Assembly: GCA_007125415.1 (NCBI GenBank)
Contig: SLDH01000248.1
Location: 1-12,775, forward strand
Direction of reading: 5' to 3'
DNA: 12,775 nucleotides
Source: Roseovarius sp.
GTDB taxonomy: Bacteria; Pseudomonadota; Alphaproteobacteria; Rhodobacterales; Rhodobacteraceae
Shown: positions 151 to 12,640 of the stretch, piece by piece
Position numbering within the stretch: position 1 is the stretch's first letter
How the letters are laid out: the number at the start of each line of letters is the position of its first letter
Translations under genes and position numbers: made by a program
The notes under the pieces: generated by a model
Told to the model about the DNA's origin: nothing
Seen by the model: the letters and a program-made list of their open reading frames with translations, nothing else
The model's database searches: none

Positions 151-240
151 CTTTTGTCAGGTGGCGAACACTAACAGGTTGCGGAAATAGGAAATCGACT
201 GGAACCTTGCACGGAAACTGCTCTTCTCCCATGCCCGGGC
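151..240 (+). repeat. Left copy of flanking direct repeat B
   Basis: Bases 171-240 align without gaps to 12571-12640 at about 55 of 70 positions. The core 191-220 matches at 28 of 30 and includes CGACTGGAACCTTGCA. A further shared CTTTTGT lies just upstream at 151-157 here and 12556-12562 on the right. The repeat lies 28 bases beyond the lysR stop, outside the gene cluster. It could be a dispersed intergenic repeat, an attachment-like site or a remnant of a mobile element. Confidence 0.65.
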
Positions 241-267: not shown

Positions 268-1185
268 TCACGCGGAAAATGTTTCAAGCGTATCGGCGAC
301 CATGTCGATGAACCAGTCGCGGAAATGCAGCGCAAGCTTGTTCTTCAGGCTGCGCGCGGGAAGGATGATCCGCGCGGGCTGTGGCGCCGGAACAGAATAT
401 GGCAGCGGCCGGATCAGGGTGCCCGCCGACAATTCGGTATGGACCATCAACTCATCGGCGATGGCGAGCCCGCAGCCATTCTTGGCGGCCCGGTTCGACA
501 GCAGATAGTTGCCCAGATACATGTTCGCACGCGGCATGATCTGCCGCTGGCCGAGAATGTTCAGAAACCGCTTCCATTCCGCGCCATCGTAGTCACCATG
601 GATGAAGACATGGTCGTTCAGTTCGCTTAAGGTGCCGGGCGGCGCACTGTTCTCGAGCAGCAGAGGTGTGCACACGACGAAGTAATTGAGCGACAGGTAG
701 GTGATATCCGCTTCGCCCACATCGGGGATCTCGGTATAGGCAATGATCACGTCGACTGTCTCGTCAATCTCCTCCAGCGGCATCCAGGTGAAATCCACCA
801 ACTGGTTTTCGATTATGAACTGGCTGGAATAGGCCGGGATCGAGGAACTGGCAATGGCGGTCGACGCGGCGACCTTCAGGTGCCTGGGATTGATGATCTC
901 GTTGGTTTCGATGATGCGCCGCTCGATACTGTCGAACGAGCCTTTCAGGGTCTCGAGCAGACGCTGCCCGTGGCGGCTGAGCTGCATCTTGCGGCCCTTC
1001 GCGGTGAAGAGCGGCACATCGAAATGGGCTTCGAGCGTGCGCATCTGGTGGCTGACCGCACTGTAGGTCACGCCAAGCTCTTCCGCGGCCTGGCTCATGT
1101 TGAGATGCCTGCCCACCGCCTCGAACGCGAAGAGGCTGTTGAGGGGCGGCAGGCGCCTGCGCCGCAGAGGTGCGCTTTCGGTCAT
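268..1185 (-). CDS. LysR-family transcriptional regulator (GcvA-like)
   Basis: This 305-residue protein has the standard LysR length. An N-terminal winged helix-turn-helix occupies about residues 13-72, with the family pattern LNSLFAFEAVGRHLNMSQAA followed by a recognition helix around YSAVSHQMRTLE and VPLF. The opening RRRLPPLNSL is characteristic of the GcvA-like subgroup. The remainder, about 95-300, is the effector-binding domain. The start gives the usual short N-terminal arm before the helix-turn-helix. It is transcribed divergently from the substrate-binding protein gene across a 285-base gap, the classical arrangement for a LysR regulator controlling the neighbouring catabolic operon. 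Its ligand is unknown; a substrate or intermediate of the amide/CoA pathway encoded here is the natural guess. Assignment to the family is firm, the regulatory target is inferred. Confidence 0.93.
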   Translation of the reverse strand: MTESAPLRRRRLPPLNSLFAFEAVGRHLNMSQAAEELGVTYSAVSHQMRTLEAHFDVPLFTAKGRKMQLSRHGQRLLETLKGSFDSIERRIIETNEIINPRHLKVAASTAIASSSIPAYSSQFIIENQLVDFTWMPLEEIDETVDVIIAYTEIPDVGEADITYLSLNYFVVCTPLLLENSAPPGTLSELNDHVFIHGDYDGAEWKRFLNILGQRQIMPRANMYLGNYLLSNRAAKNGCGLAIADELMVHTELSAGTLIRPLPYSVPAPQPARIILPARSLKNKLALHFRDWFIDMVADTLETFSA

Positions 1186-1470: not shown

Positions 1471-2517
1471 ATGCAAGGAATGACCAGATTTCCACGTCAC
1501 ATGAGGACCATCCTTTCAGCCGGGATGATCACGGCCGCCGGTGCGGCGCAGGCGTCTGATTCGATCACCGCCGTGTCATGGGGTGGCAATTATCAGGAAG
1601 CCATGCGCCATTCGTTCTTCACGCCAGCCGCCGAACAGTTGGGTATCGAGATACGCGAAGACACGCTTTCAGGCATTGCCGATGTCAGGCTTCAGGTGCT
1701 CTCCCGCGCCGTGAGCTGGGATATCGTCGAACTGGCCAGCTCGTCCTGCGTTGCCGGGGCGCAGGAAGGGCTTTTCGAGCCGCTGGATTACGATGTGATC
1801 GACGTGACGGGCTTTCCCGAGGGCACCTATGGCGAGCATTGGATCGCGTCGATGTTCTACTCGACCGTTCTTGCCTGGAACACCGAGAAATACGCCGATA
1901 ATCCACCCACGGGCTGGGCCGATTTCTTTGATACCGAAAACTTCCCCGGCACGCGCTCGCTCTACAACAGCACCAACGGAACCCTGGAGTTCGCTTTGCT
2001 GGCCGATGGGGTAAGCGCCGAAGACCTCTATCCGCTTGATGTGGAGCGCGGCTTCGACAAGCTGCGCGAGATCCGGGATGATGTGGCCATCTGGTGGACC
2101 TCGGGGGCCCAGACCACGCAGCTTGCCAAGGATGGTGAGGTCGACATGATCGCCGCCTGGAGCAGCCGGATCGATCAGGCGATGGCTGACGGGGCGGCGT
2201 ACGATTATACCTTCAACGAAGGCATGATGGATTTCGGTTGCTTTGCCATTCCGAAGGGATCGGAAAACGTCGATGCCGCGATGCAGGCGCTGGCGCTCTT
2301 CGCCACTGCCGAATTGCAGGCCAATGTGCCCTCGCATATCAATTATGGCCCGATCAATGTTGCCGCTTTCGACACCGGCAAGATCGATCCTGACGTGGCC
2401 GCGGGGCTGAATTCCGCACCTGCCAACCTGCCATTGCAATTCGTGGCCGGTGTGGACTGGATCGCGGAAAACCAGCAGCGTATGCAGGAGCGCTGGGACG
2501 AGTTTCTCACCGAATAG
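1471..2517 (+). CDS. Periplasmic ABC transporter substrate-binding protein (spermidine/putrescine type)
   Basis: The protein has 348 residues. The N-terminus has basic residues (R6, R9, R12), a hydrophobic stretch and an AQA-S site, so signal peptidase I cleavage is expected after A28, releasing a mature protein of about 320 residues to the periplasm. ITAVSWGGNYQEAMR, GWADFFDTENFPGTRSLY (148-165) and TTQLAKDGEVDMIAAW (215-230) are typical of PotD-like family 1/8 solute receptors for polyamines, opines and related cationic or amide-containing compounds. Two cysteines (C93, C257) remain in the mature protein. The ATG at 1471 is chosen for AGGAAGGA eight bases upstream; later methionines would shorten the signal peptide. 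It is the first gene of the plus-strand series and is separated from its permeases by two metabolic genes. The exact ligand cannot be read from the sequence. Confidence 0.9.
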   Translation: MQGMTRFPRHMRTILSAGMITAAGAAQASDSITAVSWGGNYQEAMRHSFFTPAAEQLGIEIREDTLSGIADVRLQVLSRAVSWDIVELASSSCVAGAQEGLFEPLDYDVIDVTGFPEGTYGEHWIASMFYSTVLAWNTEKYADNPPTGWADFFDTENFPGTRSLYNSTNGTLEFALLADGVSAEDLYPLDVERGFDKLREIRDDVAIWWTSGAQTTQLAKDGEVDMIAAWSSRIDQAMADGAAYDYTFNEGMMDFGCFAIPKGSENVDAAMQALALFATAELQANVPSHINYGPINVAAFDTGKIDPDVAAGLNSAPANLPLQFVAGVDWIAENQQRMQERWDEFLTE

Positions 2518-2622: not shown

Positions 2623-4731
2623 ATGACCAATCCTCTTGATCCCCTGCTGCGTGCCCGCTCGCTCGCCCTTGTCGGCGCATCTCCCAGACCGGGCAGCTAT
2701 GGCCAGGGCATGATCCGCGCCAGCCTCGATGCGGGCTATGAAGGCCGGGTCTATTTCGTGAATCCCGGTTATGACGAGATCGAGGGACAGCCCTGCTATC
2801 CTTCGCTGGCCGATCTTCCGGAGGTGCCCGAGCATGCGGTGCTGATGATCGCCAATTCGCGGATCGAACAGATCCTTGCCGAAGCGATTGCCAAGGGCGT
2901 GAAGGCCGCGACGATTTTCGCCAGCCTGCAACTGGATGATGGCAACCCGGTGCCGCTGGCCGAGCGCGTGAAGCGCATGGCGACCGAGGCCGGGATGCTC
3001 ATCTGTGGCGGCAACGGTTCGGGGTTCTACAACCGCGTCCACAAGCTGCGCTGCCGGATGGGTGCGCGCGAGGCCGAGGAGCCGGGGCCGGTGACGCTCA
3101 TCTCGCAATCGGGCTCGCTGGGCGCTGCGGTGGAAGACAATGATGGGCGGCTGCGCTTCAACATCACCGTCTCCTCCGGGCAGGAACTGACCACGGACGC
3201 CTCCGATTACATGCATTTCGCTCTGGATGAGCCGAGCACCAAGGCCATCGGCCTTTGCATCGAAACGATCCGCAAACCCGGGAATTTCGTGGCCGCTCTC
3301 GCACGGGCGCAGGAAATGGGCATTCCCGTGGTCATGCTTAAAGTGGCCAAGAGCGAGCAGGGAAAGCGCTTTGCCGTCAGCCATTCGGGCGCGCTGGCCG
3401 GTGACAGCGCGGTTTATGAGGCGATCATGCGGCGCTATGGCGGGCTTTGCGTGGATGATCTCGATGAGATGGTGGCAACCCTGCAATTGCTGACCTCTGG
3501 CCGCAGGGCGACAACGAACGAGATCGTCGCGATCACCGATTCGGGGGGCGAGCGTGAGCTTCTGGCGGATTTAGCCTCGGAGACGGGGGTGGGCTTTACG
3601 CAGATCACCGAAACGACCCGCCAGCGCCTGTCGGAGATCGTGGAATACGGGCTCGATGCGGAAAACCCGCTGGACGCCTGGGGCACGGGCCACGGCTATC
3701 AGCAGATATTCGGCAATTCCATCGAGACCCTGCTGCAGGATCCCGGCGCGGGCATGGGCATCTGGGTCGCTGATCTCAGGGAACATCTGGGCTACTACGT
3801 TGGCTTTGCCGAGGCCGCGATGGACGTGGCCACCCGAACAGAAAAGCCGCTGGCCTTCGCCACCTGCTACTCGAAATGCAACAACGCAAACCTGGCCCAA
3901 AGACTTGCCGCAGCCGGTGTGCCCGTGCTGGAAGGCATTCGCCCCGCCATGGTTGCCACGCGCCACATGCTCGCCTTCTCGACCCGGAAGCCGGAGCCTG
4001 TGGGCGCCACCTCGGCGGCGCTGCCCGACGAGATGCTGAGCCGCTGGCGCACGCGCCTCGCGCAGCCCGAGGCGCTGGGTGAAAGCGAGGGGCTCGCTCT
4101 TCTGGCGGATTTCGGCATCCCCGTGGCACGGCACGCGCGGGCATCGGCCCTCGAGGAGGCGCTGCGCGCGGCAGAGGAGATCGGCTATCCGGTCGTTCTC
4201 AAGAGCGCGCAGCCGGGGCTTTTGCACAAATCCGATCAGGGGGGCGTCGTGCTGGGGCTCAAGGATCGCGATGCGCTCTCGCATGCCTATGAGCGGATGC
4301 AGCGCGCGTTGGGGCCGGACGTTCTGATTGCAGCCGAGGTGGCGCCGGGCGTGGAATTCACGCTCGGGTTCTTTCAGGATGCGCAATTCGGCCCGATGAT
4401 GCTGATCGGCGCGGGTGGCGTGCTGGTCGAGGTCTTGCGCGACACGGCCGTTGCCGTGCCGCCCATCGGCCCGAACGGGGCGCGGGATCTGATCGAAGGG
4501 CTGCAGATGCGCCCGCTTCTGGACGGGTATCGCGGGTCCGAGCCATGCGATATCGGCGCTCTGGTCGAGACGGTGCAGCGTTTTTCCGAACTGGCGCACA
4601 GCCTTGGCGATCTGCTGGGCGAGGCGGATGTCAATCCGCTCATCGTCTCGGCGGGCGGTGTTGTCGCGGTCGATGCGCTTTTCGTGCCGCGCGCCACACA
4701 ATCACAACTTGGAAAGGTCGAACATGTCTGA
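2623..4731 (+). CDS. Acyl-CoA ligase, NDP-forming (acetate--CoA ligase family, fused subunits)
   Basis: The 702-residue protein resembles ADP-forming acyl-CoA synthetases that make a CoA thioester from a carboxylate, ATP and CoA through phosphohistidine intermediates. Domain order: CoA-binding Rossmann domain (about 8-130, LALVGASPRPGSYG), succinyl-CoA ligase-like domains (about 155-460, SQSGSLG at 161-167), then an ATP-grasp domain (about 485-690). The expected active-site His is present in SHSGALAG (H254), and the second His of the ATP-grasp segment in HKSDQGGV (H535). The length fits the fused alpha-beta form. The start has a weak GAGG four bases upstream (2615-2618). The last bases overlap the enoyl-CoA hydratase start by 8 bases, so the two are translationally coupled and probably act in sequence. 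The acid substrate is unknown; it is presumably the carboxylate freed by the amidohydrolase genes downstream. Protein acetyltransferases share this architecture but carry an extra GNAT domain, which is absent here. Confidence 0.9.
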   Translation: MTNPLDPLLRARSLALVGASPRPGSYGQGMIRASLDAGYEGRVYFVNPGYDEIEGQPCYPSLADLPEVPEHAVLMIANSRIEQILAEAIAKGVKAATIFASLQLDDGNPVPLAERVKRMATEAGMLICGGNGSGFYNRVHKLRCRMGAREAEEPGPVTLISQSGSLGAAVEDNDGRLRFNITVSSGQELTTDASDYMHFALDEPSTKAIGLCIETIRKPGNFVAALARAQEMGIPVVMLKVAKSEQGKRFAVSHSGALAGDSAVYEAIMRRYGGLCVDDLDEMVATLQLLTSGRRATTNEIVAITDSGGERELLADLASETGVGFTQITETTRQRLSEIVEYGLDAENPLDAWGTGHGYQQIFGNSIETLLQDPGAGMGIWVADLREHLGYYVGFAEAAMDVATRTEKPLAFATCYSKCNNANLAQRLAAAGVPVLEGIRPAMVATRHMLAFSTRKPEPVGATSAALPDEMLSRWRTRLAQPEALGESEGLALLADFGIPVARHARASALEEALRAAEEIGYPVVLKSAQPGLLHKSDQGGVVLGLKDRDALSHAYERMQRALGPDVLIAAEVAPGVEFTLGFFQDAQFGPMMLIGAGGVLVEVLRDTAVAVPPIGPNGARDLIEGLQMRPLLDGYRGSEPCDIGALVETVQRFSELAHSLGDLLGEADVNPLIVSAGGVVAVDALFVPRATQSQLGKVEHV
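4711..4717 (+). promoter_or_regulatory. Ribosome binding site fixing the hydratase start
   Basis: GGAAAGG lies inside the 3' end of the CoA ligase gene, six bases before the ATG at 4724. It supports that start over the longer frame opening at 4604, whose extra 40 codons would lie entirely within the ligase gene. Confidence 0.7.
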
Positions 4732-5542
4732 CAGTGACGACACGCTCAAAATCGAAATCGCCGACAAGATCGCGCATCTTCGCATAAACCGCACGCGACA
4801 GATGAACGTCATCGACCCCCCGATGATGGAGCGCATCAAGAAAATCTTTGCAGAGCTCGACGCCGATGACAGCGTCTCGGTGATCATCCTGTCGGGCGAG
4901 GGCAAGCATTTCGGCGCGGGCTATGATCTTACCTTCGCATGGGGTGACACCTATGGCCGCGATATCTTCGGGCAGCGCAAGATGTTGCAGGACTGCGTGA
5001 ATTTCGAGTATGCGCCCTGGGATTGCAGCAAGCCGGTGATCGCCATGGTGCGCGGTTACTGCCTTGCGGGAAGCTGCGAGCTGGCGATGATGTGTTGCGT
5101 CACCATGGCCAGCGACAACGCCATGTTCGGCGAGCCGGAAATCAGGTTCTCGACCTCGCCGCCGGCCATGATCATGCCCTGGGTTGTGGGCCTGAAGAAG
5201 GCGCGCGAACTGCTCTACACGGGCGACATGATTCCGGCCGAAGAGGCGCTTGCCTGTGGTATGATCAACCGCGTGGTGCCGGATGACAAGCTGGAGGACG
5301 AGACGATGCGCCTTGCCCGCCGGATGGCGGCCATCTCCATCGAGGGGCTGCGCACCACCAAGGCGGCGATCAACAAGGGTGCCGAAATCGCCGGGCTTCG
5401 CCAGGCTATCGATTACGGGATCGAACAGGGTGCCATGCTCGATTCCACCGAGACGGAAGCCCTCAAGACCTTCTCCGAAATCCGCAAGGCCGAAGGGCTG
5501 AAAGCGGCGATCCGCTGGCGCGAAAGCCAGTTTCCGGACTAG
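4724..5542 (+). CDS. Enoyl-CoA hydratase/isomerase family protein
   Basis: This 272-residue crotonase-fold enzyme is of normal family length. Both acidic residues used by true enoyl-CoA hydratases are in place: E119 in GSCELAMMC and E139 in FGEPEI, exactly 20 residues apart as in the rat mitochondrial enzyme (E144/E164). The oxyanion-hole segments KHFGAGYDL (61-69) and YCLAGSCEL (112-120) are also present. Hydration of a trans-2-enoyl-CoA, or the reverse dehydration, is therefore chemically plausible. The gene overlaps the upstream CoA ligase by 8 bases, so the ligase product is the likely substrate. A 46-base gap separates it from the first permease. Exact acyl specificity, or a carnitinyl-CoA dehydratase-like or isomerase role, cannot be decided from the sequence. 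Confidence 0.9.
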   Translation: MSDSDDTLKIEIADKIAHLRINRTRQMNVIDPPMMERIKKIFAELDADDSVSVIILSGEGKHFGAGYDLTFAWGDTYGRDIFGQRKMLQDCVNFEYAPWDCSKPVIAMVRGYCLAGSCELAMMCCVTMASDNAMFGEPEIRFSTSPPAMIMPWVVGLKKARELLYTGDMIPAEEALACGMINRVVPDDKLEDETMRLARRMAAISIEGLRTTKAAINKGAEIAGLRQAIDYGIEQGAMLDSTETEALKTFSEIRKAEGLKAAIRWRESQFPD

Positions 5543-5588
5543 GATCAGATAGCCGGACGGCAGACCAAAGGGGAGAGACAGACGAAAA

Positions 5589-6536
5589 ATGGCCCAAACA
5601 GCTCCTCCTTCTCCGAATCCGCATAGCGCCGAGGCTTTCGCTCAGGGTGCCGCCTCGGAGCAGGAGCGACCCAACCGCGACCGGCTCAAGCGGGCCGCCC
5701 TGCGTGAGGGCGTTTCGGTCAGCGTTCTGTCTGTGCCGGCGCTGTTGCTGGTTTTCTTCGGGCTCATCCTGCCCTGCGGCTGGCTGCTTTTGCTCTCCTT
5801 TGTGGGAGCAGACGGTTCGCTTTCCTGGGAAAATTACCAGAGGATGATCGACAGCCCGTCCTACTATCGGATCTTCGTCACCACTTTCCAGATCTCGCTC
5901 CTCACGACGCTGATCTGCGTGGCTCTGGGCTATCCGCTGGCCTATGTGATCACCCTTCTGCCCAAGTCGCTCGTGGCATTGGCCCTGCTGGCGGTGCTGT
6001 TGCCCTTCTGGACGTCGATGCTGGTGCGCACCTACGCCTGGCTGGTGATCCTGCAGAATAATGGTGTGATCAACTCGATGCTGATCCGCAACGGCATCAT
6101 CGATGCGCCCATTGCGCTGGTGCATAATTTCACCGGAACGCTTATCGGGACGGCGCATATCATGCTGCCCTTCCTCGTGCTGCCGCTTTACAACGCCATG
6201 CGCTCGATCGACCGTGGCCTGATCCTCGCGGCGGCCAATCTCGGCGCGAGCCCGACTGTGCGCTTCTGGACGGTCTATTTCCCGCTCACTCTGCCGGGGC
6301 TGATTGCCGGTGCGTTGCTGGTCTTCGTGCTTTCGCTCGGTTTCTACATCACACCCGCCATTCTGGGTGGCGGCAGGGTCATCATGGCGGCCATGCGCAT
6401 TCAAAGCTCTGTGGCCCTCTATGCGAACTGGGGGGCGGCGAGCGCCATTGCAGCGGTCCTGCTGCTGGCCACGATCGTCTTTCTGCTGATCAGCCTCTGG
6501 CTCAGCCGTCATGTTTTCGGATCGAGAGGTCGCTGA
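5589..6536 (+). CDS. ABC transporter permease (PotB-like)
   Basis: The 315-residue inner-membrane protein has about six membrane segments, near residues 45-71, 101-124, 128-155, 180-202, 234-258 and 285-306. Between the fourth and fifth lies the ATPase-contact 'EAA' loop, here ANLGASPTVRFWTVYFPLTLPG (216-237) with the conserved Gly and Pro-Leu-x-x-Pro-Gly ending, typical of PotB-like permeases. A hydrophilic N-terminal tail of about 40 residues precedes the first helix and is longer than usual. The purine-rich GGGGAG (5570-5575) is 13 bases from the ATG, a wide spacing, so translation may be modest or the start slightly different. The stop abuts the next permease start directly, so the two permeases are co-translated as a heterodimeric channel. 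Confidence 0.92.
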   Translation: MAQTAPPSPNPHSAEAFAQGAASEQERPNRDRLKRAALREGVSVSVLSVPALLLVFFGLILPCGWLLLLSFVGADGSLSWENYQRMIDSPSYYRIFVTTFQISLLTTLICVALGYPLAYVITLLPKSLVALALLAVLLPFWTSMLVRTYAWLVILQNNGVINSMLIRNGIIDAPIALVHNFTGTLIGTAHIMLPFLVLPLYNAMRSIDRGLILAAANLGASPTVRFWTVYFPLTLPGLIAGALLVFVLSLGFYITPAILGGGRVIMAAMRIQSSVALYANWGAASAIAAVLLLATIVFLLISLWLSRHVFGSRGR

Positions 6537-7370
6537 GTGATGCTGAGGTGGTTGCAAGGCTCTGCATGGGATCAGGTGCCGCATCTTCGGCGGCTGTGGC
6601 TCTATCTGGTGGCCTTTCTGGTCATGTTCGTCCTCGTGGTGCCGAGCCTTGTCGTGATTCCCATGTCCTTCTCGGCCTCGCGCTATCTCGAGTTTCCGCC
6701 AAGCGGCTATTCGCTCGACTGGTACCGGGCCCTCTTCGGGTCCTCCACATGGATGTCGGCGATCCGCACCTCGCTGACCGTGGCCGCGCTCACGGTTCTT
6801 GTGGCCACGCCGGCGGGGACGCTTGCCGCCTATGTGATCATCCTTGCCCGGCCGCGCGCCGCCACGCTGATGCAGGGCGCGCTCCTGGGCCCCATCCTCG
6901 TGCCCATCATCATGATCGGGGTTGGCCTATTCTACGTCTATGCCCGGATGGGGCTGCTCAACAGTGTGACAGGGCTCGTGCTGGCGCATTCCATGCTGGC
7001 CTTGCCGCTGGTGATGGTCACGGTGCTGGCAGGCTTCCGGACCTGTGACATGAACCAGGAGATGGTGGCCCGCAGCCTCGGCGCGTCGCGCCCTGTTGCC
7101 TTCCTGACCGTGACTGTCCCGCAGATCAAGCGCTCGATCCTGACAGCGATGTTGCTGTCGTTTCTCGTCTCGCTCGACGAGGTGATCATCGCCCTCTTCA
7201 TCTCGGGCGGTGACAGATCGACCATCACGCGGCTGATGTTCAATTCGCTGCGCGACGAGATCGACCCGGTGATCGCGGCCATTTCGACCCTGCTGATCCT
7301 GATCTCGATAATCAGCGTCCTGATTATTCACCTGCTATCGACCGCCCGCAGCGCAAGGGAGAAGACATGA
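6537..7370 (+). CDS. ABC transporter permease (PotC-like)
   Basis: This 277-residue partner permease has about six membrane helices, near 21-42, 78-104, 112-135, 143-167, 200-222 and 245-268. The EAA loop is EMVARSLGASRPVAFLTV (175-192), and a PotC-type SLDEVIIALFISGG (212-225) follows. The chosen GTG at 6537 follows the previous stop without a gap; an ATG at 6540 is an equally good start and changes the product by one residue. Its stop overlaps ATG 7367 in an ATGA. Together with the preceding permease and the ATPase it forms the importer for the compound bound by the 1471-2517 protein. Confidence 0.92.
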   Translation: MMLRWLQGSAWDQVPHLRRLWLYLVAFLVMFVLVVPSLVVIPMSFSASRYLEFPPSGYSLDWYRALFGSSTWMSAIRTSLTVAALTVLVATPAGTLAAYVIILARPRAATLMQGALLGPILVPIIMIGVGLFYVYARMGLLNSVTGLVLAHSMLALPLVMVTVLAGFRTCDMNQEMVARSLGASRPVAFLTVTVPQIKRSILTAMLLSFLVSLDEVIIALFISGGDRSTITRLMFNSLRDEIDPVIAAISTLLILISIISVLIIHLLSTARSAREKT

Positions 7371-7444
7371 GCCTGCTGACCCTCCGCCGCTTACTGCCCA
7401 TGGCCGGAAGTGATGCCCGCAAGGGCGGAAAGGCCCGGCAATGA
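7367..7444 (+). CDS. Possible 25-residue basic peptide ORF between permease and ATPase
   Basis: An ATG at 7367 overlaps the permease stop (ATGA, 7367-7370). The frame ends in a TGA (7442-7444) that overlaps the ATPase start (ATGA, 7441-7444). A good Shine-Dalgarno, AAGGGAG (7355-7361), lies five bases upstream. The peptide starts MSLLTLRRLLP and ends GGKARQ. It is rich in Leu and Arg/Lys and matches no family known to me. The ORF precisely bridges the 70-base gap so that ribosomes could pass from permease to ATPase without a break. It may be a coupling leader rather than a functional protein, or a chance frame. Confidence 0.4.
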   Translation: MSLLTLRRLLPMAGSDARKGGKARQ

Positions 7445-8559
7445 GCAAGGATGAGCCAAAATTCACGAATTCCGAGGGCGGCCTGCGCGCCCCTGCGCTG
7501 CCCATAGACCTGCGCAATGTCACCAAGACCTATGGCAAGCTGACCGCACTGGACAATGTGAGCCTCGAGATCGGTGCGGGCGAATTCCTCAGCCTTTTGG
7601 GGCCTTCTGGCTCGGGCAAGACGACCCTCCTGATGGTCATCGCAGGGTTCATTCGCCCCGATCATGGCGCGCTTGTGGTGGGCGGGCGGGACATGGTGGT
7701 GCAGCCGCCGCACAAGCGCGACCTCGGCATGGTTTTTCAGAACTACGCGCTCTTTCCCAACATGAGTGTTGCGGGCAATGTCGGCTATCCGCTCAGGCTG
7801 CGCCGGGTGCCCGCCCGCGAGGCGGCCGAGCGTACCGAAAAGGCGCTCGAGATGGTGCGGCTCGGCGGCTATGGCGAACGGAGCATCGATGCGCTTTCGG
7901 GCGGGCAGCGTCAGCGCGTCGCTCTGGCGCGCGCCATCGTCTTCGAGCCACGCATCCTGTTGATGGACGAGCCTCTCTCGGCGCTCGACAAGCAGCTTCG
8001 CGAACAGATGCAGATCGAGATCCGGCGCATTCATGATGAGCTGGGGATCACCACGATCTACGTGACCCACGACCAGCGCGAGGCGCTGACCATGTCAGAC
8101 CGGATCGCGGTGATCGATCACGGACGTTTCATGCAGGTCGATACCCCGCGCGCACTTTATGATCAGCCGCTCAATCGTTTCGTGGCGAGCTTCATCGGCG
8201 AATCGAACTTCCTGCCCGCTACCCTTTCTTCCGGCAAGCCGTATTTTGGCGATATGCCGCTGCGCATGACACGGCCCGTGCCCGAGGGGGCCTCGCATCA
8301 GTTGATGGTCCGCCCGGAAAAGCTGCGCATCGTGCAGGATGGCGCGCCGGAGGGTGACTTTCACAACCGTTTCCCGGCCACGACCCGGCAGGTGGTTTTT
8401 CAGGGGGACAGCGCGTTGGTTTACGCCATCCTCGCCGATGGCAGCGAAGTTTCCATGCGGTTGCCAAGCCGGGCCGGATCAGGCACCGCGCTGCCCGAGC
8501 CGGGCCAGAGCGTGACCTTGGGTTTGCATGAGGATGATACCGTGCTGGTGGCGGAATGA
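7441..8559 (+). CDS. ABC transporter ATP-binding protein (PotA-like)
   Basis: The 372-residue cytoplasmic ATPase has every nucleotide-binding motif intact: Walker A GPSGSGKT (54-61), Q-loop Gln100 in MVFQNYALFP, signature LSGGQRQR (152-159), Walker B RILLMDEP (171-178) with catalytic Glu177, D-loop SALD (180-183) and H-loop His210 in VTHDQ. Residues beyond about 240 form the regulatory TOBE domain found in PotA/MalK-type importers. GGAAAGG (7427-7433) sits seven bases before the ATG. It energises the two upstream permeases. A 57-base gap follows before the amidase genes. Family and role are clear; substrate specificity is set by the binding protein. Confidence 0.95.
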   Translation: MSKDEPKFTNSEGGLRAPALPIDLRNVTKTYGKLTALDNVSLEIGAGEFLSLLGPSGSGKTTLLMVIAGFIRPDHGALVVGGRDMVVQPPHKRDLGMVFQNYALFPNMSVAGNVGYPLRLRRVPAREAAERTEKALEMVRLGGYGERSIDALSGGQRQRVALARAIVFEPRILLMDEPLSALDKQLREQMQIEIRRIHDELGITTIYVTHDQREALTMSDRIAVIDHGRFMQVDTPRALYDQPLNRFVASFIGESNFLPATLSSGKPYFGDMPLRMTRPVPEGASHQLMVRPEKLRIVQDGAPEGDFHNRFPATTRQVVFQGDSALVYAILADGSEVSMRLPSRAGSGTALPEPGQSVTLGLHEDDTVLVAE

Positions 8560-8616
8560 GACCTGCCATGGGCACCCTCGCCGGCATTTGCCGAAATGAC
8601 ATGAAAGGAGCGTCGG

Positions 8617-8934
8617 ATGTATGAGATCGATCCCGCGAGAGCGGATCTGGTGCGCGAGTTCGAGGCGAACCCGAATGGCCCCTACAGCCCCGAATTGACG
8701 CTGGTGGTCAATCGACTGCGGCTCATGCCGATCGAGGACCGGCATGTGCTGGTTTGCACCAGACAGGGCCGGGAATGGGCCATGGTCAGGATGCCCGCCC
8801 GGGGCGGCGCGCCGATAGAGCCGGGTGATGCGCCGCGCTTTCACGATGCCGAAGAGGCGGCGCGCGCGGTCTTTCGGGCGCGCTGGAAAACCGTGACCGG
8901 GCAGGACCCGGAATTTCAGCAGGCGAAAGGGTGA
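8617..8934 (+). CDS. dmfA1: N,N-dimethylformamidase-type small (alpha) subunit
   Basis: This 105-residue protein lies three bases upstream of the large subunit. The segment GPYSPELTLVVNRLRLMP (21-38) and the late DAEEAARAVFRARW (77-90) resemble the small subunit of bacterial dimethylformamidase, which packs on the catalytic large subunit in an alpha2beta2-type complex. It seems shorter than the Paracoccus DMF-degrader subunit (about 15 kDa). A strong AAGGAG (8605-8610) lies six bases before the ATG. No catalytic residues are expected in this subunit. The call rests on resemblance plus pairing with the large subunit. The symbol marks the family and does not mean DMF is the substrate. Confidence 0.8.
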   Translation: MYEIDPARADLVREFEANPNGPYSPELTLVVNRLRLMPIEDRHVLVCTRQGREWAMVRMPARGGAPIEPGDAPRFHDAEEAARAVFRARWKTVTGQDPEFQQAKG

Positions 8935-8937
8935 CCG

Positions 8938-11160
8938 ATGAAAAAGGTTATTGGATATTGTGATGACTGGAGCGCGGTCGCGGGCGGCAAGATCGACTTC
9001 AAGGTGAGCACCTATGGCCCCGAGCGTTTCGAGGCGCAACTGGTGCGGGTCATCTGCGGGGACGCACATCCCGATCATGGCATCTTCAAGGAGGAAGAAA
9101 TCGAGGCGCCCTTCAACGGGACGCATGACGGCTGGACCCAACCTGTGAATGCCGGATCGCGGGCGGTCGTGCCCGCATCGCCCGTGCTGGCAGGGCTTGA
9201 GAGCTTCACCGTGCAGGCCTGGGTCTTTGCCACCACGCCCGGAAGAGGCGAGCAGGGGATCGTCACCCAATGGCAGGAGAACCCGGCCAGGGGCTTTGCG
9301 CTGATGCTCGACAAGGATGGCGCGGCGATGCTGCGGGTGGGCGATGGCGCGGGGCAGGTGGCGGAGGTCTCCACCGGTTTGCCGCTGGCGGCGCGGCGCT
9401 GGTATCTGCTCACGGCGTCTCATGACGCGCAAAGCGGGCAGATCACCATCCGCCAGACACCCGGCCCTACCGCGTTGGAGAAGTTTTCGAGCGGTGAGGC
9501 CACCGCCACGGGCGCTTTCTCCGCCGCCGATGCGCCGCTGCATTTCGCCGCCTTTCCCGCGAGCGCCGGAGACGGCCACGACCGCCATTTCAACGGCAGG
9601 ATCGACCGCCCCCGCCTGAGCAAAGTCGTGCAGAGCGCGGCCGAGAGTTCCGCCATCGGCGCGCATACCGATCCTGCACAGGATCATGATGATGTTGTGG
9701 CAGCCTGGGATTTCTCGCAGGCCATCGGCACCCAGGAGATCCGCGATACCGGGCCCAACGCCCTGCACGGGCGCACGGAAAACCTGCCATCGCGAGGCTG
9801 CAAGGGGCATAACTGGACCGGGCAGGAGCAGAACTTCGCCCACGCCCCGCAGGAATACGGCGCGATCCATTTTCACGAGGATGACCTTCATGACGCGGGC
9901 TGGCAAACCAGCTTCAGCTACGCCATTCCCTCCACATTGCGCAGCGGGGTTTACGCTGTGCGCCTGCGCGCGGGAGAAGACCAGAGCTACATCACCTTTT
10001 TCGTGCGCCCCGCGAAGGGGCAACCCACCGAGAAGCTGGCGTTTCTCGCCTCCACCGTCACCTATATGGCCTATGCAAACTACCAGTGGCACCAGCACCA
10101 GCATTTTGCCGAGGTGACCGAAGACTTCTGGACGGTGCTGCAGCCTGTGGATGTCTTCATGCAGAAGCATCCCGAGTTCGGCCTTTCGACCTATGACACG
10201 CATTTCGATGGCAGCGGCGTGCGCTTTTCATCGCGATTGCGGCCGATCTTCAACGCAGCGCCCGGCACACCCTACTGGAGCTTCAATGCCGATACGCATA
10301 TTCTGGGGTGGCTCGACAGTCAGGGCATCGCCTATGACGTGATCACCGATGAGGACCTGCATCGCGAGGGGGCGGCGGCGCTTGCGCCCTATCGGGCAGT
10401 GCTTACCGGCGCGCATCCTGAATATTACACCACCCCGATGATGGAGGGGCTGCACGAGTATATCGCGGGGGCGGGCCGTCTGATCTATCTGGGAGGAAAC
10501 GGCTTCATCTGGCGCTGCGCCATGTCCGAGGCCGCGCCGGGGGTGATCGAGCTGCGCCGCGCCGAGGATGGCATCCGCTATCGCGATGAGGAGCCGGGCG
10601 AATACTATCTGGAACTCACCGGAGAATATGGCGGCCTGTGGCGGCGGCTGGGCCTGCCGCCACAGGCGCTTGTCGGCGTGGGCACGGTGGCAGTGGGCTT
10701 TGATGTGTCGGGCCATTATCTGCGCACGCCTCAGGGCGATGACCCGCGCGCGGCCTTCATCTTCGAGGGGATCGGGCGCGATGAGATCATCGGTGATTTC
10801 GGCTATCTCGGCGGGGGCGCGAGCGGCTCGGAGATCGATGCGGTCGATCCGCTCCTGGGCACGCCCACCCATGCGCTGGTGGTGGCAAGCTCGGTCGGGC
10901 ATTCGCCCAATACGCTGCTTTGCCCTGATGAGATCGGCTTTACCAATAATGTGATGGATGGCGTGCAGAACCCGAAGGTGCGCGCCGACATGACTTTTTT
11001 CGAAACGCCGGGGGGTGGCGCTGTCTTTTCGGTGGGCTCGATCGCCTGGGCGGGCAGCCTGCCGCATGAGGGCTATGACAACAACATCTCTCGGCTGACC
11101 GGCAATGTGCTGCGCCGCTTTCTCGATGAGACACCCTTCGAGATGCCAGTCAGCTCATAA
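8938..11160 (+). CDS. dmfA2: N,N-dimethylformamidase-type large (beta) subunit, iron amidohydrolase
   Basis: The 740-residue catalytic subunit begins KKVIGYCDDWSAVAGGKIDF, as in dimethylformamidases. Apparent domains: N-terminal beta domain (1-75), LamG/concanavalin-like domain (about 80-230, FTVQAWVFATTP and W-LLTASHDAQSG), and a large C-terminal Rossmann-like catalytic domain (about 300-735). The family hydrolyses an amide bond with a mononuclear Fe(III) held by two Tyr and one Glu. Matching conserved segments here are TYMAYANY (375-382; Tyr376/379/382 candidates), STYDTHFDGSG (417-427; Tyr419) and AHPEYYT (492-498; Glu495), so the metal site looks complete. No signal peptide is seen, so it is cytoplasmic. 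It is co-translated with the small subunit. Known members release formate and dimethylamine from DMF; the CoA ligase and hydratase in this operon point to a different amide. Family call is firm, substrate open. Confidence 0.9.
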   Translation: MKKVIGYCDDWSAVAGGKIDFKVSTYGPERFEAQLVRVICGDAHPDHGIFKEEEIEAPFNGTHDGWTQPVNAGSRAVVPASPVLAGLESFTVQAWVFATTPGRGEQGIVTQWQENPARGFALMLDKDGAAMLRVGDGAGQVAEVSTGLPLAARRWYLLTASHDAQSGQITIRQTPGPTALEKFSSGEATATGAFSAADAPLHFAAFPASAGDGHDRHFNGRIDRPRLSKVVQSAAESSAIGAHTDPAQDHDDVVAAWDFSQAIGTQEIRDTGPNALHGRTENLPSRGCKGHNWTGQEQNFAHAPQEYGAIHFHEDDLHDAGWQTSFSYAIPSTLRSGVYAVRLRAGEDQSYITFFVRPAKGQPTEKLAFLASTVTYMAYANYQWHQHQHFAEVTEDFWTVLQPVDVFMQKHPEFGLSTYDTHFDGSGVRFSSRLRPIFNAAPGTPYWSFNADTHILGWLDSQGIAYDVITDEDLHREGAAALAPYRAVLTGAHPEYYTTPMMEGLHEYIAGAGRLIYLGGNGFIWRCAMSEAAPGVIELRRAEDGIRYRDEEPGEYYLELTGEYGGLWRRLGLPPQALVGVGTVAVGFDVSGHYLRTPQGDDPRAAFIFEGIGRDEIIGDFGYLGGGASGSEIDAVDPLLGTPTHALVVASSVGHSPNTLLCPDEIGFTNNVMDGVQNPKVRADMTFFETPGGGAVFSVGSIAWAGSLPHEGYDNNISRLTGNVLRRFLDETPFEMPVSS

Positions 11161-11217
11161 CCACCCGTCACCACATTTTTCCGTTATTCAATACTCCCAC
11201 AAGAAGGAAATCAAACC

Positions 11218-12462
11218 ATGGGAAAAAACCGCGATCTGGTCTTCGAATCCTGCCAGCCGGAAATGGACCTCCCGTTCAGCCAGGCCGAATATGACGAGCG
11301 GCTGAAGCGCATCCGCGCCTGCATGGAGCGCGATGGCATCGAGCTGCTCTGGCTGATGTCACCCGAAGCGCTCTTTTATGTCAGCGGCTACAAATGCATC
11401 TGGTATCAGGCGCAAAGCCCGCGCTCATGGCCTGCCACCAGCGGCATCGCGATTCATCGCGACCATGATGATTTCATCATGTTCGACACGCCGAGCGAGG
11501 AGATCATGTGCCGCTTTGTGACCTGCGCGAAGGATGTGCGCATCTTTCCCATGACCGGGCGACGCGACGGGCTGAGCTTCATCATCGACGAGTTGAAGGC
11601 CGAGGGCTGGCTCACGTCGGGCAAGGTGGGGCTGGAATTGCACAGCTACCGGCCCAATCCGCTGATCAGCGGGCGCTTCGAGGAGGCGTTCAGCGGCGCC
11701 GGCATGTCCGTCGTGGACGGCACCGACATCATTCGCGAGTTGCGCTGGATCAAATCCCCGGCCGAGATCGCGTATCTCGAGGAGGCTTCGCGCATTACCG
11801 ATATCGGCCTGGAGGCGGCAAAGAACGCGATCCGCCCCGGTGCGACCGAACTCGATGTCATGGCTGAGATGAACTATGCCATGGGCAAGGCCGGTGGCGA
11901 GCCGGCCGGGCTGATCCTGCCGGTCAATTCGGGCGCCAAGGCCAATTGCGGCCATGCCATGGCCGGGCGCCGGGTGATTCAGGCAGGCGAGCAGGTCAAC
12001 ATTGATGTCGCCGGTGTCTATAATCGCTACCATTCCGATGCCGCGCGATCCTTCTATGTGGGCGAGCCACCCAAGGATGTGCTGGATTATCATGCGCTGT
12101 CCTCGGGTGTATTCGACGTGATCGACAGCATCATCCGGCCGGGGCTGCCGGTCTCCGAGCTTATCAACACGACCCGCGCCTATTACGATGAGGTGGGCAT
12201 CTGGTCGGACAGGGGCTGGGTCGGTGGTTATGAGCTTGGCCTTGCCTTCCCGCCAGACTGGGTGGGCAACTATGTGTATGAGATGACCGACACCGACAGC
12301 GACAAGGTTTTCGAGCCCGGCACGATCGTCAATTTCGAAAGCCAGTTCTATGCGCCGCGCATGGCGGGCATGACCTATTACATCGACACGTTGCTTTTCA
12401 AGGAAGACACGGCGCTTCGGCCGCTGACTTTCCAGCCGAAGCTGGTTATCGTCGACGCTTGA
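11218..12462 (+). CDS. M24 'pita-bread' hydrolase, creatinase/aminopeptidase P-like, atypical metal site
   Basis: The 414-residue protein has the two-domain M24 layout: a creatinase-type N-terminal domain (about 22-165) and a pita-bread domain (about 175-400). Catalytic His246 (CGHAMAGRRV) and two metal-ligand Asp, D263 (NIDVAG) and D274 (HSDAARSF), are conserved, as is E374 (NFESQFY). The usual GHGIG His is Tyr338 (GYELG), followed by a PPDW motif, and the last metal-binding Glu is replaced by Ile389 (YYIDTLL). With two of five ligands missing, a standard dimetal peptidase is unlikely. Creatinase and ectoine hydrolase are M24 relatives that cleave C-N bonds without the dimetal centre, so a small-molecule amide/amidine hydrolase is the better guess. 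AAGAAGGA (11201-11208) lies nine bases before the ATG. It is the last gene of the series, after a 57-base gap. The annotated family may include DddP-like DMSP lyases, but those keep the metal ligands. Confidence 0.85.
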   Translation: MGKNRDLVFESCQPEMDLPFSQAEYDERLKRIRACMERDGIELLWLMSPEALFYVSGYKCIWYQAQSPRSWPATSGIAIHRDHDDFIMFDTPSEEIMCRFVTCAKDVRIFPMTGRRDGLSFIIDELKAEGWLTSGKVGLELHSYRPNPLISGRFEEAFSGAGMSVVDGTDIIRELRWIKSPAEIAYLEEASRITDIGLEAAKNAIRPGATELDVMAEMNYAMGKAGGEPAGLILPVNSGAKANCGHAMAGRRVIQAGEQVNIDVAGVYNRYHSDAARSFYVGEPPKDVLDYHALSSGVFDVIDSIIRPGLPVSELINTTRAYYDEVGIWSDRGWVGGYELGLAFPPDWVGNYVYEMTDTDSDKVFEPGTIVNFESQFYAPRMAGMTYYIDTLLFKEDTALRPLTFQPKLVIVDA

Positions 12463-12555: not shown

Positions 12556-12640
12556 CTTTTGTGCTTATCCCTGACAGGTTGCCAAGGGGGGGAATCGACT
12601 GGAACCTTGCAGGGAAACTGTTCTGTTGCCATGGCCGGGT
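12556..12640 (+). repeat. Right copy of flanking direct repeat B
   Basis: 12571-12640 aligns to 171-240 in the same orientation at about 55 of 70 bases, with the core 12591-12620 at 28 of 30. The shared CTTTTGT lies upstream at 12556-12562. It is outside the terminator that closes the gene cluster, so the two copies bracket everything from lysR to the M24 gene. Confidence 0.65.

What the first reader, a model, noticed from the sequence alone, without database searches (positions are those of the whole stretch)
2623..12462. DMFase-type amidohydrolase combined with CoA ligase, enoyl-CoA hydratase, M24 hydrolase and a polyamine-type importer: candidate new amide-catabolism system
Seen: one co-directional series encodes importer, DMFase-type alpha/beta subunits, creatinase-like M24 protein, NDP-forming acyl-CoA ligase and an active-site-intact enoyl-CoA hydratase, with a divergent LysR. 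Known: dimethylformamidase releases formate and an amine from DMF; formate needs no CoA ligase or hydratase, and amine-oxidising genes are absent here. Inference: the enzyme cleaves an N-substituted amide of a C3 or larger acid, whose carboxylate is activated and hydrated (an acrylic- or crotonic-type acid would fit). This would widen the DMFase family beyond DMF.
Basis: partly seen in the sequence, partly recalled or inferred. Interest (0 to 1): 0.75.

Follow-up and report, generated by a model that had tools for sequence, protein, structure and literature searches.

The report
Operon for importing and splitting amides
A bacterium carries one operon that seems to import an organic amide, split it with an iron enzyme related to solvent-degrading dimethylformamidase, and pass the acid half on as a CoA ester; the parts are known, the combination and the substrate are not.

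Summary
In detail: ten intact genes, nine co-directional with gaps of at most 105 bases (binding protein, CoA ligase, enoyl-CoA hydratase, two permeases, ATPase, small and large DMFase-type subunits, M24 protein), and a divergent LysR. The operon starts at 1471, not 2623. All 159 aligned large subunits, the window's included, keep the iron ligands and the catalytic His. The window lacks two DMFase motifs and shares those of N-acetyl-(R)-beta-phenylalanine acylase, a solved family member, so the family already reaches beyond DMF. The CoA genes lie near the enzyme in 1 of 26 close relatives (11 with 7 kb visible on both sides), but the hydratase ortholog exists somewhere in 10 of 17 of their genomes. 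The steadiest partner is the M24 protein (7 of 8 relatives in the window's subclade); its usual metal site is degenerate and it shares a motif with ectoine hydrolase. The binding protein resembles opine- and GABA-binding proteins more than PotD. The same genome holds amine-dehydrogenase-like genes. Best reading: an imported N-acyl amide is split and its acid activated. The substrate is unknown. New variant of a known kind.

The parts
268..1185 (-). LysR-type regulator, divergent (GcvA-like, below that family's cut-off)
1471..2517 (+). ABC importer solute-binding protein, opine/GABA-like
2623..4731 (+). NDP-forming acyl-CoA ligase (ACD superfamily), phospho-His kept (H254)
4724..5542 (+). enoyl-CoA hydratase with both active-site Glu positions (E119, E139), overlaps the ligase gene by 8 bases
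5589..6536 (+). importer permease (PotB/PotH type, below cut-offs)
6537..7370 (+). importer permease (PotC/PotI type, below cut-offs)
7441..8559 (+). importer ATPase (over the potA subfamily cut-off)
8617..8934 (+). DMFase-type small subunit (weak sequence match, strong gene adjacency)
8938..11160 (+). DMFase-family large subunit; iron ligands Y379, Y419, E495 and catalytic H493 kept; motifs NGFIWR and GEYGGLWR
11218..12462 (+). M24 (creatinase/ectoine-hydrolase-like) protein with degenerate metal site
171..239 (+). copy of a dispersed 69-base repeat, left of the cluster
12571..12639 (+). second copy of the dispersed repeat, right of the cluster

Best explanation
One operon, patchily distributed and probably acquired by horizontal transfer, takes up an N-acyl amide that bears a carboxylate (an N-acylated amino acid or a similar conjugate). 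The Fe(III) 2-Tyr-1-Glu amidohydrolase splits it into an amine or amino acid and a carboxylic acid of three or more carbons. The ligase turns the acid into a CoA ester, and the hydratase adds water to its (already present or later formed) double bond. The M24 protein is a non-peptidase C-N hydrolase that acts one step before or after the amidase. Shown: the genes, their order, the conserved catalytic residues, the degenerate M24 metal site. Inferred: transfer, substrate class, direction of the steps, the carboxylate on the ligand.
For: Iron ligands and catalytic His identical in 159 of 159 aligned large subunits (roles from PMC7686228). The window shares NGFxWR and GEYGGLWR with N-acetyl-(R)-beta-phenylalanine acylase; DMFase has NGMYWI and GRRGGRFR, found in 2 of 159 rows. 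The ligase gene adjoins the hydratase ortholog in 10 of 12 loci where the place can be read. In samples of the window's family, mostly one genome a genus, the hydratase ortholog is in 0 of 383 others and the enzyme's clade (60% or more) in 0 of 393 others, which fits joint arrival. The binding protein keeps five of eight GABA-site residues (W37, Y130, W230, R233, Y292) but has Gly for D228, which contacts the GABA amino group (residues named in PMC12999171): this fits a ligand whose amine is masked. Of 11 named plasmid records viewed, 6 show a full ABC importer beside the DMFase-type gene, of four kinds (the other five are).
Against: CoA genes are not usual neighbours in the clade (1 of 26; 1 of the 11 with full flanks). 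No acyl-CoA dehydrogenase in the operon, so a saturated acid would need one from elsewhere. The binding-site inference rests on one pairwise alignment, and a solved chain named spermidine/putrescine-binding also matches at 6e-38, so a polyamine-like ligand is not excluded. The clade does occur in relatives that my family samples missed: L002 (76%) and a record named Roseovarius sp. (70%, P0016), so transfer is not proven. The hydratase's spread follows a few families (f34, f114), so shared ancestry may explain part of the genome-level link. F693, said to narrow the DMFase pocket, is kept as F668 in the window, which does not favour a larger substrate; that position varies in the family (F in 34 of 159). 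The R and W of the shared motifs are the family majority (133 and 157 of 159), so they say 'not DMFase' more than 'acylase'.
Confidence: 0.44

Rival explanations
1. The amine half is what matters: the amidase and M24 protein release an amine that is oxidised by histamine/trimethylamine-dehydrogenase-like enzymes encoded elsewhere; the CoA pair is a local add-on.
For: Nearest relative L002 has amine oxidase (PF01593) and dehydrogenase-like genes directly upstream of small-large-M24 (best solved match histamine dehydrogenase). Dehydrogenase-like genes (200 bits or more) within 7 kb in 5 of 26 relatives and PotD-like binding proteins in 6 of 26. Own genome has importer plus dehydrogenase-like clusters (L187, L188). 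L025 has an N-carbamoylputrescine amidase over its cut-off and an agmatine-deiminase-like gene under its cut-off.
Against: No amine-oxidising gene in this operon, while the CoA pair is inside it; the binding protein is further from PotD than from opine- and GABA-type proteins.
Confidence: 0.28
2. The CoA pair is an unrelated passenger that was recombined into an importer operon.
For: The pair is a free-standing module in most fetched loci, next to other genes.
Against: It lies between the binding-protein and permease genes with short gaps, and a hydratase and ligase of the same type are near the enzyme in L009.
Confidence: 0.15
3. A true dimethylformamidase or small-formamide hydrolase.
For: 38.5% identity to 6lvb and the same iron site; F693 kept.
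Against: Lacks both DMFase motifs; different tree branch; for DMF, a CoA ligase and hydratase would have no use.
Confidence: 0.07
4. A DMSP/acrylate system (ligase like DddX, M24 like DddP).
For: Nearest solved ligase is DddX.
Against: Glu432, the most probable base of DddX (PMC8163506 passages), is Tyr in the window; M24 scores DddP 36.7 bits against 140 for DoeA.
Confidence: 0.02

Closest known systems
N,N-dimethylformamidase of Paracoccus (6lvb)
   Same: domain family, iron ligands, His, small plus large subunit
   Different: motifs NGMYWI/GRRGGRFR absent from the window; separate branch; importer, CoA and M24 genes in the window
N-acetyl-(R)-beta-phenylalanine acylase (8huy)
   Same: iron ligands, NGFxWR and GEYGGLWR motifs; 40.1% identity
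   Different: not on the same branch of the tree; Ser at the F668 position; its genomic context was not seen
Ectoine hydrolase DoeA/EutD with deacetylase DoeB/EutE
   Same: logic of an M24-type hydrolase paired with a de-acylating enzyme (PMC5924519 passages); GYxxG...PPDW motif
   Different: DoeA scores far under the cut-offs (140 of 575 and 99 of 613 bits); that DoeB is of an unrelated family is recalled
Aminobacter niigataensis DMFA1 plasmid locus
   Same: DMFase-type gene with an ABC importer
   Different: importer of the branched-chain amino acid type; no CoA or M24 genes listed in the 20-kb stretch

Membership tests
DMFase family (DMFA2_C, iron amidohydrolase) | DMFA2_C domain over cut-off | tested here: met
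   300 bits against 27
DMFase family (DMFA2_C, iron amidohydrolase) | iron ligands Tyr, Tyr, Glu and catalytic His | tested here: met
   Y379, Y419, E495, H493
DMFase family (DMFA2_C, iron amidohydrolase) | small subunit encoded next to it | tested here: met
   8617-8934; sequence match weak, E 0.0036
True dimethylformamidase | motifs NGMYWI and GRRGGRFR of 6lvb | tested here: not met
True dimethylformamidase | hydrolysis of DMF | not testable with these tools
   needs the enzyme
N-acyl-beta-amino-acid acylase | motifs NGFxWR, GEYGGLWR | tested here: inconclusive
   present, but R is in 133 and W in 157 of 159 rows, so they do not single out acylases
N-acyl-beta-amino-acid acylase | same branch as 8huy | tested here: not met
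   (quick tree; the 8huy branch is long)
M24 metallopeptidase | metal ligands D, D, H, E, E (recalled; places taken from prolidase 3q6d in the alignment) | tested here: not met
   window D, D, Y, E, Y; D, N, Y, E, Y in 117 of the best 120 homologs, the window's own protein being one of the 120
Ectoine hydrolase DoeA | NCBIfam cut-off | tested here: not met
   140 of 575 bits and 99 of 613
Crotonase-type hydratase | both Glu of the active site | tested here: met
   E119, E139 (role recalled)
NDP-forming acyl-CoA ligase | domains and phospho-His | tested here: met
DddX | Glu432 | tested here: not met
   Tyr at that place
Polyamine importer PotABCD | PotD-type binding protein | tested here: inconclusive
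   PotD model 34.5 of 582 bits and chains such as 1pot at about 4e-07, but 8jv1, named spermidine/putrescine-binding, at 6e-38

The most novel reading that the evidence does not exclude
The DMFase-type amidase and the metal-site-degenerate M24 protein form a new two-step pair, analogous to ectoine hydrolase plus deacetylase but built on an iron amidase: the M24 enzyme opens a cyclic or amidine-type solute to an N-acyl compound, and the iron enzyme removes the acyl group, which in this strain is a C3 or larger acid that the operon's own ligase and hydratase carry towards beta-oxidation. None of the paper listings that I saw names such a pathway.
Probability: 0.22. Interest if true: 0.68.

Novelty: new variant of a known kind. 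Interest (0 to 1): 0.44.

Why it matters
Large-subunit homologs are widespread (49 of 371 other genomes of a class sample at 1e-150), yet the word dimethylformamidase occurs in only 13 papers of the held library. In my alignment 157 of 159 rows lack the DMFase motifs, so the common label is probably wrong for most. The M24 partner and the importer make the natural substrate testable.

Tried and rejected
Hydroxycinnamoyl amides (ligase plus hydratase/lyase of the ferulate type): the hydratase is closer to a plain enoyl-CoA hydratase/isomerase entry (4k29, E 5e-53) than to hydratase/lyases (E about 3e-23) and keeps both Glu; that the lyases lack the first Glu is recalled. DMSP reading: rejected on Glu432 and on the DddP score. 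Peptidase reading of M24: the metal ligands are not kept. Structure prediction, planned for the pocket and the M24 protein, is switched off. Searches for a paper on the acylase found nothing. A homarine search gave no useful lead in its listing. No plasmid record holds a large-subunit relative of 60% or more (74 records matched, all under 60%) or an M24 relative at 1e-40. Rfam: nothing. Promoter-like sites 6 against 2.6 (sd 1.7) in shuffles, terminator-like 10 against 7.4 (sd 2.2): not used. The Fisher table was entered wrongly (3:368 for 3:365) and repeated.
Full report
WHAT IS THERE. The window is contig C88 of a draft genome of 3.09 Mb in 410 contigs, 87% complete; no call names the organism. 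It holds ten intact genes. Nine run in one direction with gaps of -8, 0, 3, 46, 57, 57, 70 and 105 bases; a LysR-type gene diverges from them. The order is: binding protein, CoA ligase, enoyl-CoA hydratase, permease, permease, ATPase, small subunit, large subunit, M24. The CoA pair thus sits inside the importer operon.

IS THE CONTIG REALLY IN THIS GENOME? A 69-base repeat flanks the cluster (171-239 and 12571-12639, 80% alike). The genome has 13 copies on 12 contigs, two of them on C88. This argues against a stray contig, but does not prove it.

THE AMIDASE. Solved relatives are DMFase (E 6e-148) and N-acetyl-(R)-beta-phenylalanine acylase (E 1e-144). Roles of residues come from PMC7686228 (parts 1 and 2 of 3 of the text read): Y399, Y440 and E521 bind iron, H519 is needed for activity. 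Their counterparts Y379, Y419, E495 and H493 are identical in 159 of 159 aligned large subunits, some of them near-copies, and N521 in 155 of 159. W568, in GEYGGLWR, is W in 157 of 159; the two with F are, by their motifs, DMFase itself and L230 of Methylobacterium sp. DM1. R526 is R in 133 of 159 and I in DMFase. The window and the acylase share the majority state, so it is DMFase that is odd. In a quick tree of 132 rows (after dropping rows 92% or more alike) the window falls in a 22-row clade with full support, away from both DMFase and the acylase, whose branches are long.

NEIGHBOURS IN RELATIVES. One scan kept the best 80 of 337 confirmed matches: 26 at 60% identity or more, called close here, and 54 at 44-50%. 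By contig names the 26 come from 22 genomes. Only 11 of the 26 show 7 kb on both sides of the enzyme, so the counts are lower bounds. Within 7 kb in the 26: small subunit 23, cupin 10, M24 that matches the window's 8 (five orthologs at 72-79%, three paralogs at about 30%; two more loci, L021 and L024, match only the paralog), PotD-like binding protein 6, histamine/trimethylamine-dehydrogenase-like 5, Rieske 5, CoA ligase 1, hydratase 1. Names rest on Pfam or NCBIfam for the examples scanned and on similarity to these for the rest. In the window's own subclade M24 is beside the enzyme in 7 of 8 relatives, in three arrangements; the eighth, L004, has none in 10 kb upstream and ends 0.9 kb downstream. 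In the sister subclade it is 1 of 13, at 1.4 kb and on the other strand, some of these loci being short. This link was surveyed from the amidase side only. Eight longest-contig lengths in the list of best M24 homologs (120 of 1,034) recur in the list of best large subunits (120 of 4,315), which I take to mean shared contigs. M24 relatives at about 50% in two loci that I fetched at length (L191, L192) have no DMFase-type gene in view. Among the 54 more distant loci, co-directional PotA-type ATPase and PotB-type permease genes lie within 7 kb in 10; both permeases upstream of the enzyme in L045, L054, L055, L056, L062, L067, L070 and L072.

THE COA PAIR. The hydratase ortholog (62-80%) is in 10 of 17 genomes of close relatives that I searched (17 of the 22), and in 3 of 368 genomes of a class-wide sample that lack the enzyme's clade; Fisher p 3e-13, but the genomes are related by descent and not independent. 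Of 14 fetched loci around it, two are cut at the contig end (L185, L186); of the other 12 the ligase gene adjoins in 10, not in L180 (the L009 locus) or L183. In L178 and L179 a gene that looks to me, from its first 50 residues, like a 3-hydroxyacyl-CoA dehydrogenase follows. In samples of the window's family, mostly one genome a genus, neither the hydratase ortholog (0 of 383 others, one match at 45%) nor the enzyme's clade (0 of 393 others, best 46%) was found; in the own genus 59 others were searched for the enzyme, best 45% over a part of its length and 44% over nearly all of it. Two relatives that may be of the same group lie outside these samples: L002, titled Rhodobacteraceae (76%), and P0016, titled Roseovarius sp. 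(70%). The distribution is patchy, which fits transfer as a unit without proving it. M24 was not tested on the family sample.

THE M24 PROTEIN. Against a prolidase fragment, the His is Tyr and the last Glu is Tyr in the window; in most homologs the second Asp is Asn too: D, N, Y, E, Y in 117 of the best 120 homologs, D, D, Y, E, Y in the window, which is one of the 120. PPDW, shared with DoeA, is intact in 118 of 120. That creatinase and DoeA work without metal is recalled. I read it as a C-N hydrolase and not a peptidase.

THE IMPORTER. The binding protein's nearest solved relatives are 4i1d, MotA and a GABA sensor; that MotA binds an opine is recalled. Of eight GABA-site residues named in PMC12999171 (passages), five are kept: W9, Y102 (an engineered F102Y), W202, R205, Y264. 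T13 is Y, F100 is M, D228 is G. D228 touches the GABA amino group; that R205 takes the carboxylate is recalled. A carboxylate ligand with a masked amine would fit. Against this stands 8jv1, named spermidine/putrescine-binding, at 6e-38.

AMINES. The own genome has ten matches to L002's dehydrogenase: three nearly full length at 51-55% (C248, C120, C82), one at 72% cut by the contig end (C248), a 63% piece on C391, and five at 28-33%. C248 and C120 also carry a PotD-like importer.

WIDER FAMILY. Of 11 named plasmid records viewed, six show a full importer beside the DMFase-type gene: peptide-type (Agrobacterium larrymoorei, and by its gene make-up Variovorax), amino-acid type with D-amino-acid enzymes further on (Burkholderia vietnamiensis), branched-chain type (A. 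tumefaciens, Aminobacter DMFA1) and spermidine/putrescine type (Rhodobacteraceae M382). Of the other five, Sulfitobacter SK012 has an importer set 3 kb upstream behind a gene on the other strand; P. aminophilus pAMI5, A. niigataensis MD1, Methylobacterium DM1 and Halalkalicoccus show no full set in the stretch listed; the plasmid gene tables are incomplete. A link with uptake is common; the link with CoA genes was seen only in this operon and L009.

VERDICT. A real, probably functional operon of known parts in a combination that I did not see elsewhere. The substrate class is an inference, and I put it at somewhat under even odds.

Noticed in passing
171-239 and 12571-12639: A dispersed 69-base repeat flanks the cluster; 13 copies in the genome on 12 contigs, several near the start of a contig.
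   Followed up: partly
L187 (G000:C248) and L188 (G000:C120): Own-genome clusters of PotD-like importer plus histamine/trimethylamine-dehydrogenase-like genes, one with two such genes in tandem.
   Followed up: partly
L025:1839-9908: Amine oxidase, Rieske oxygenase, agmatine-deiminase-like, N-carbamoylputrescine amidase, cupin, then DMFase-type small and large subunits, in one direction apart from one doubtful short frame.
   Followed up: partly
L191:7749-10092: An M24 relative (49%) follows pieces of a Rieske oxygenase 67-69% identical to that in L009: a second M24 context, without the amidase in view.
   Followed up: no
L230 (Methylobacterium sp. DM1 plasmid pLVM1): The only other row with the DMFase motifs; annotated as hypothetical protein.
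   Followed up: no
PMC10308929 passages; L229: A DMFase-named gene is reported in flotillin-associated rhodopsin clusters; in L229 a flotillin-domain gene also precedes a DMFase-type pair.
   Followed up: no
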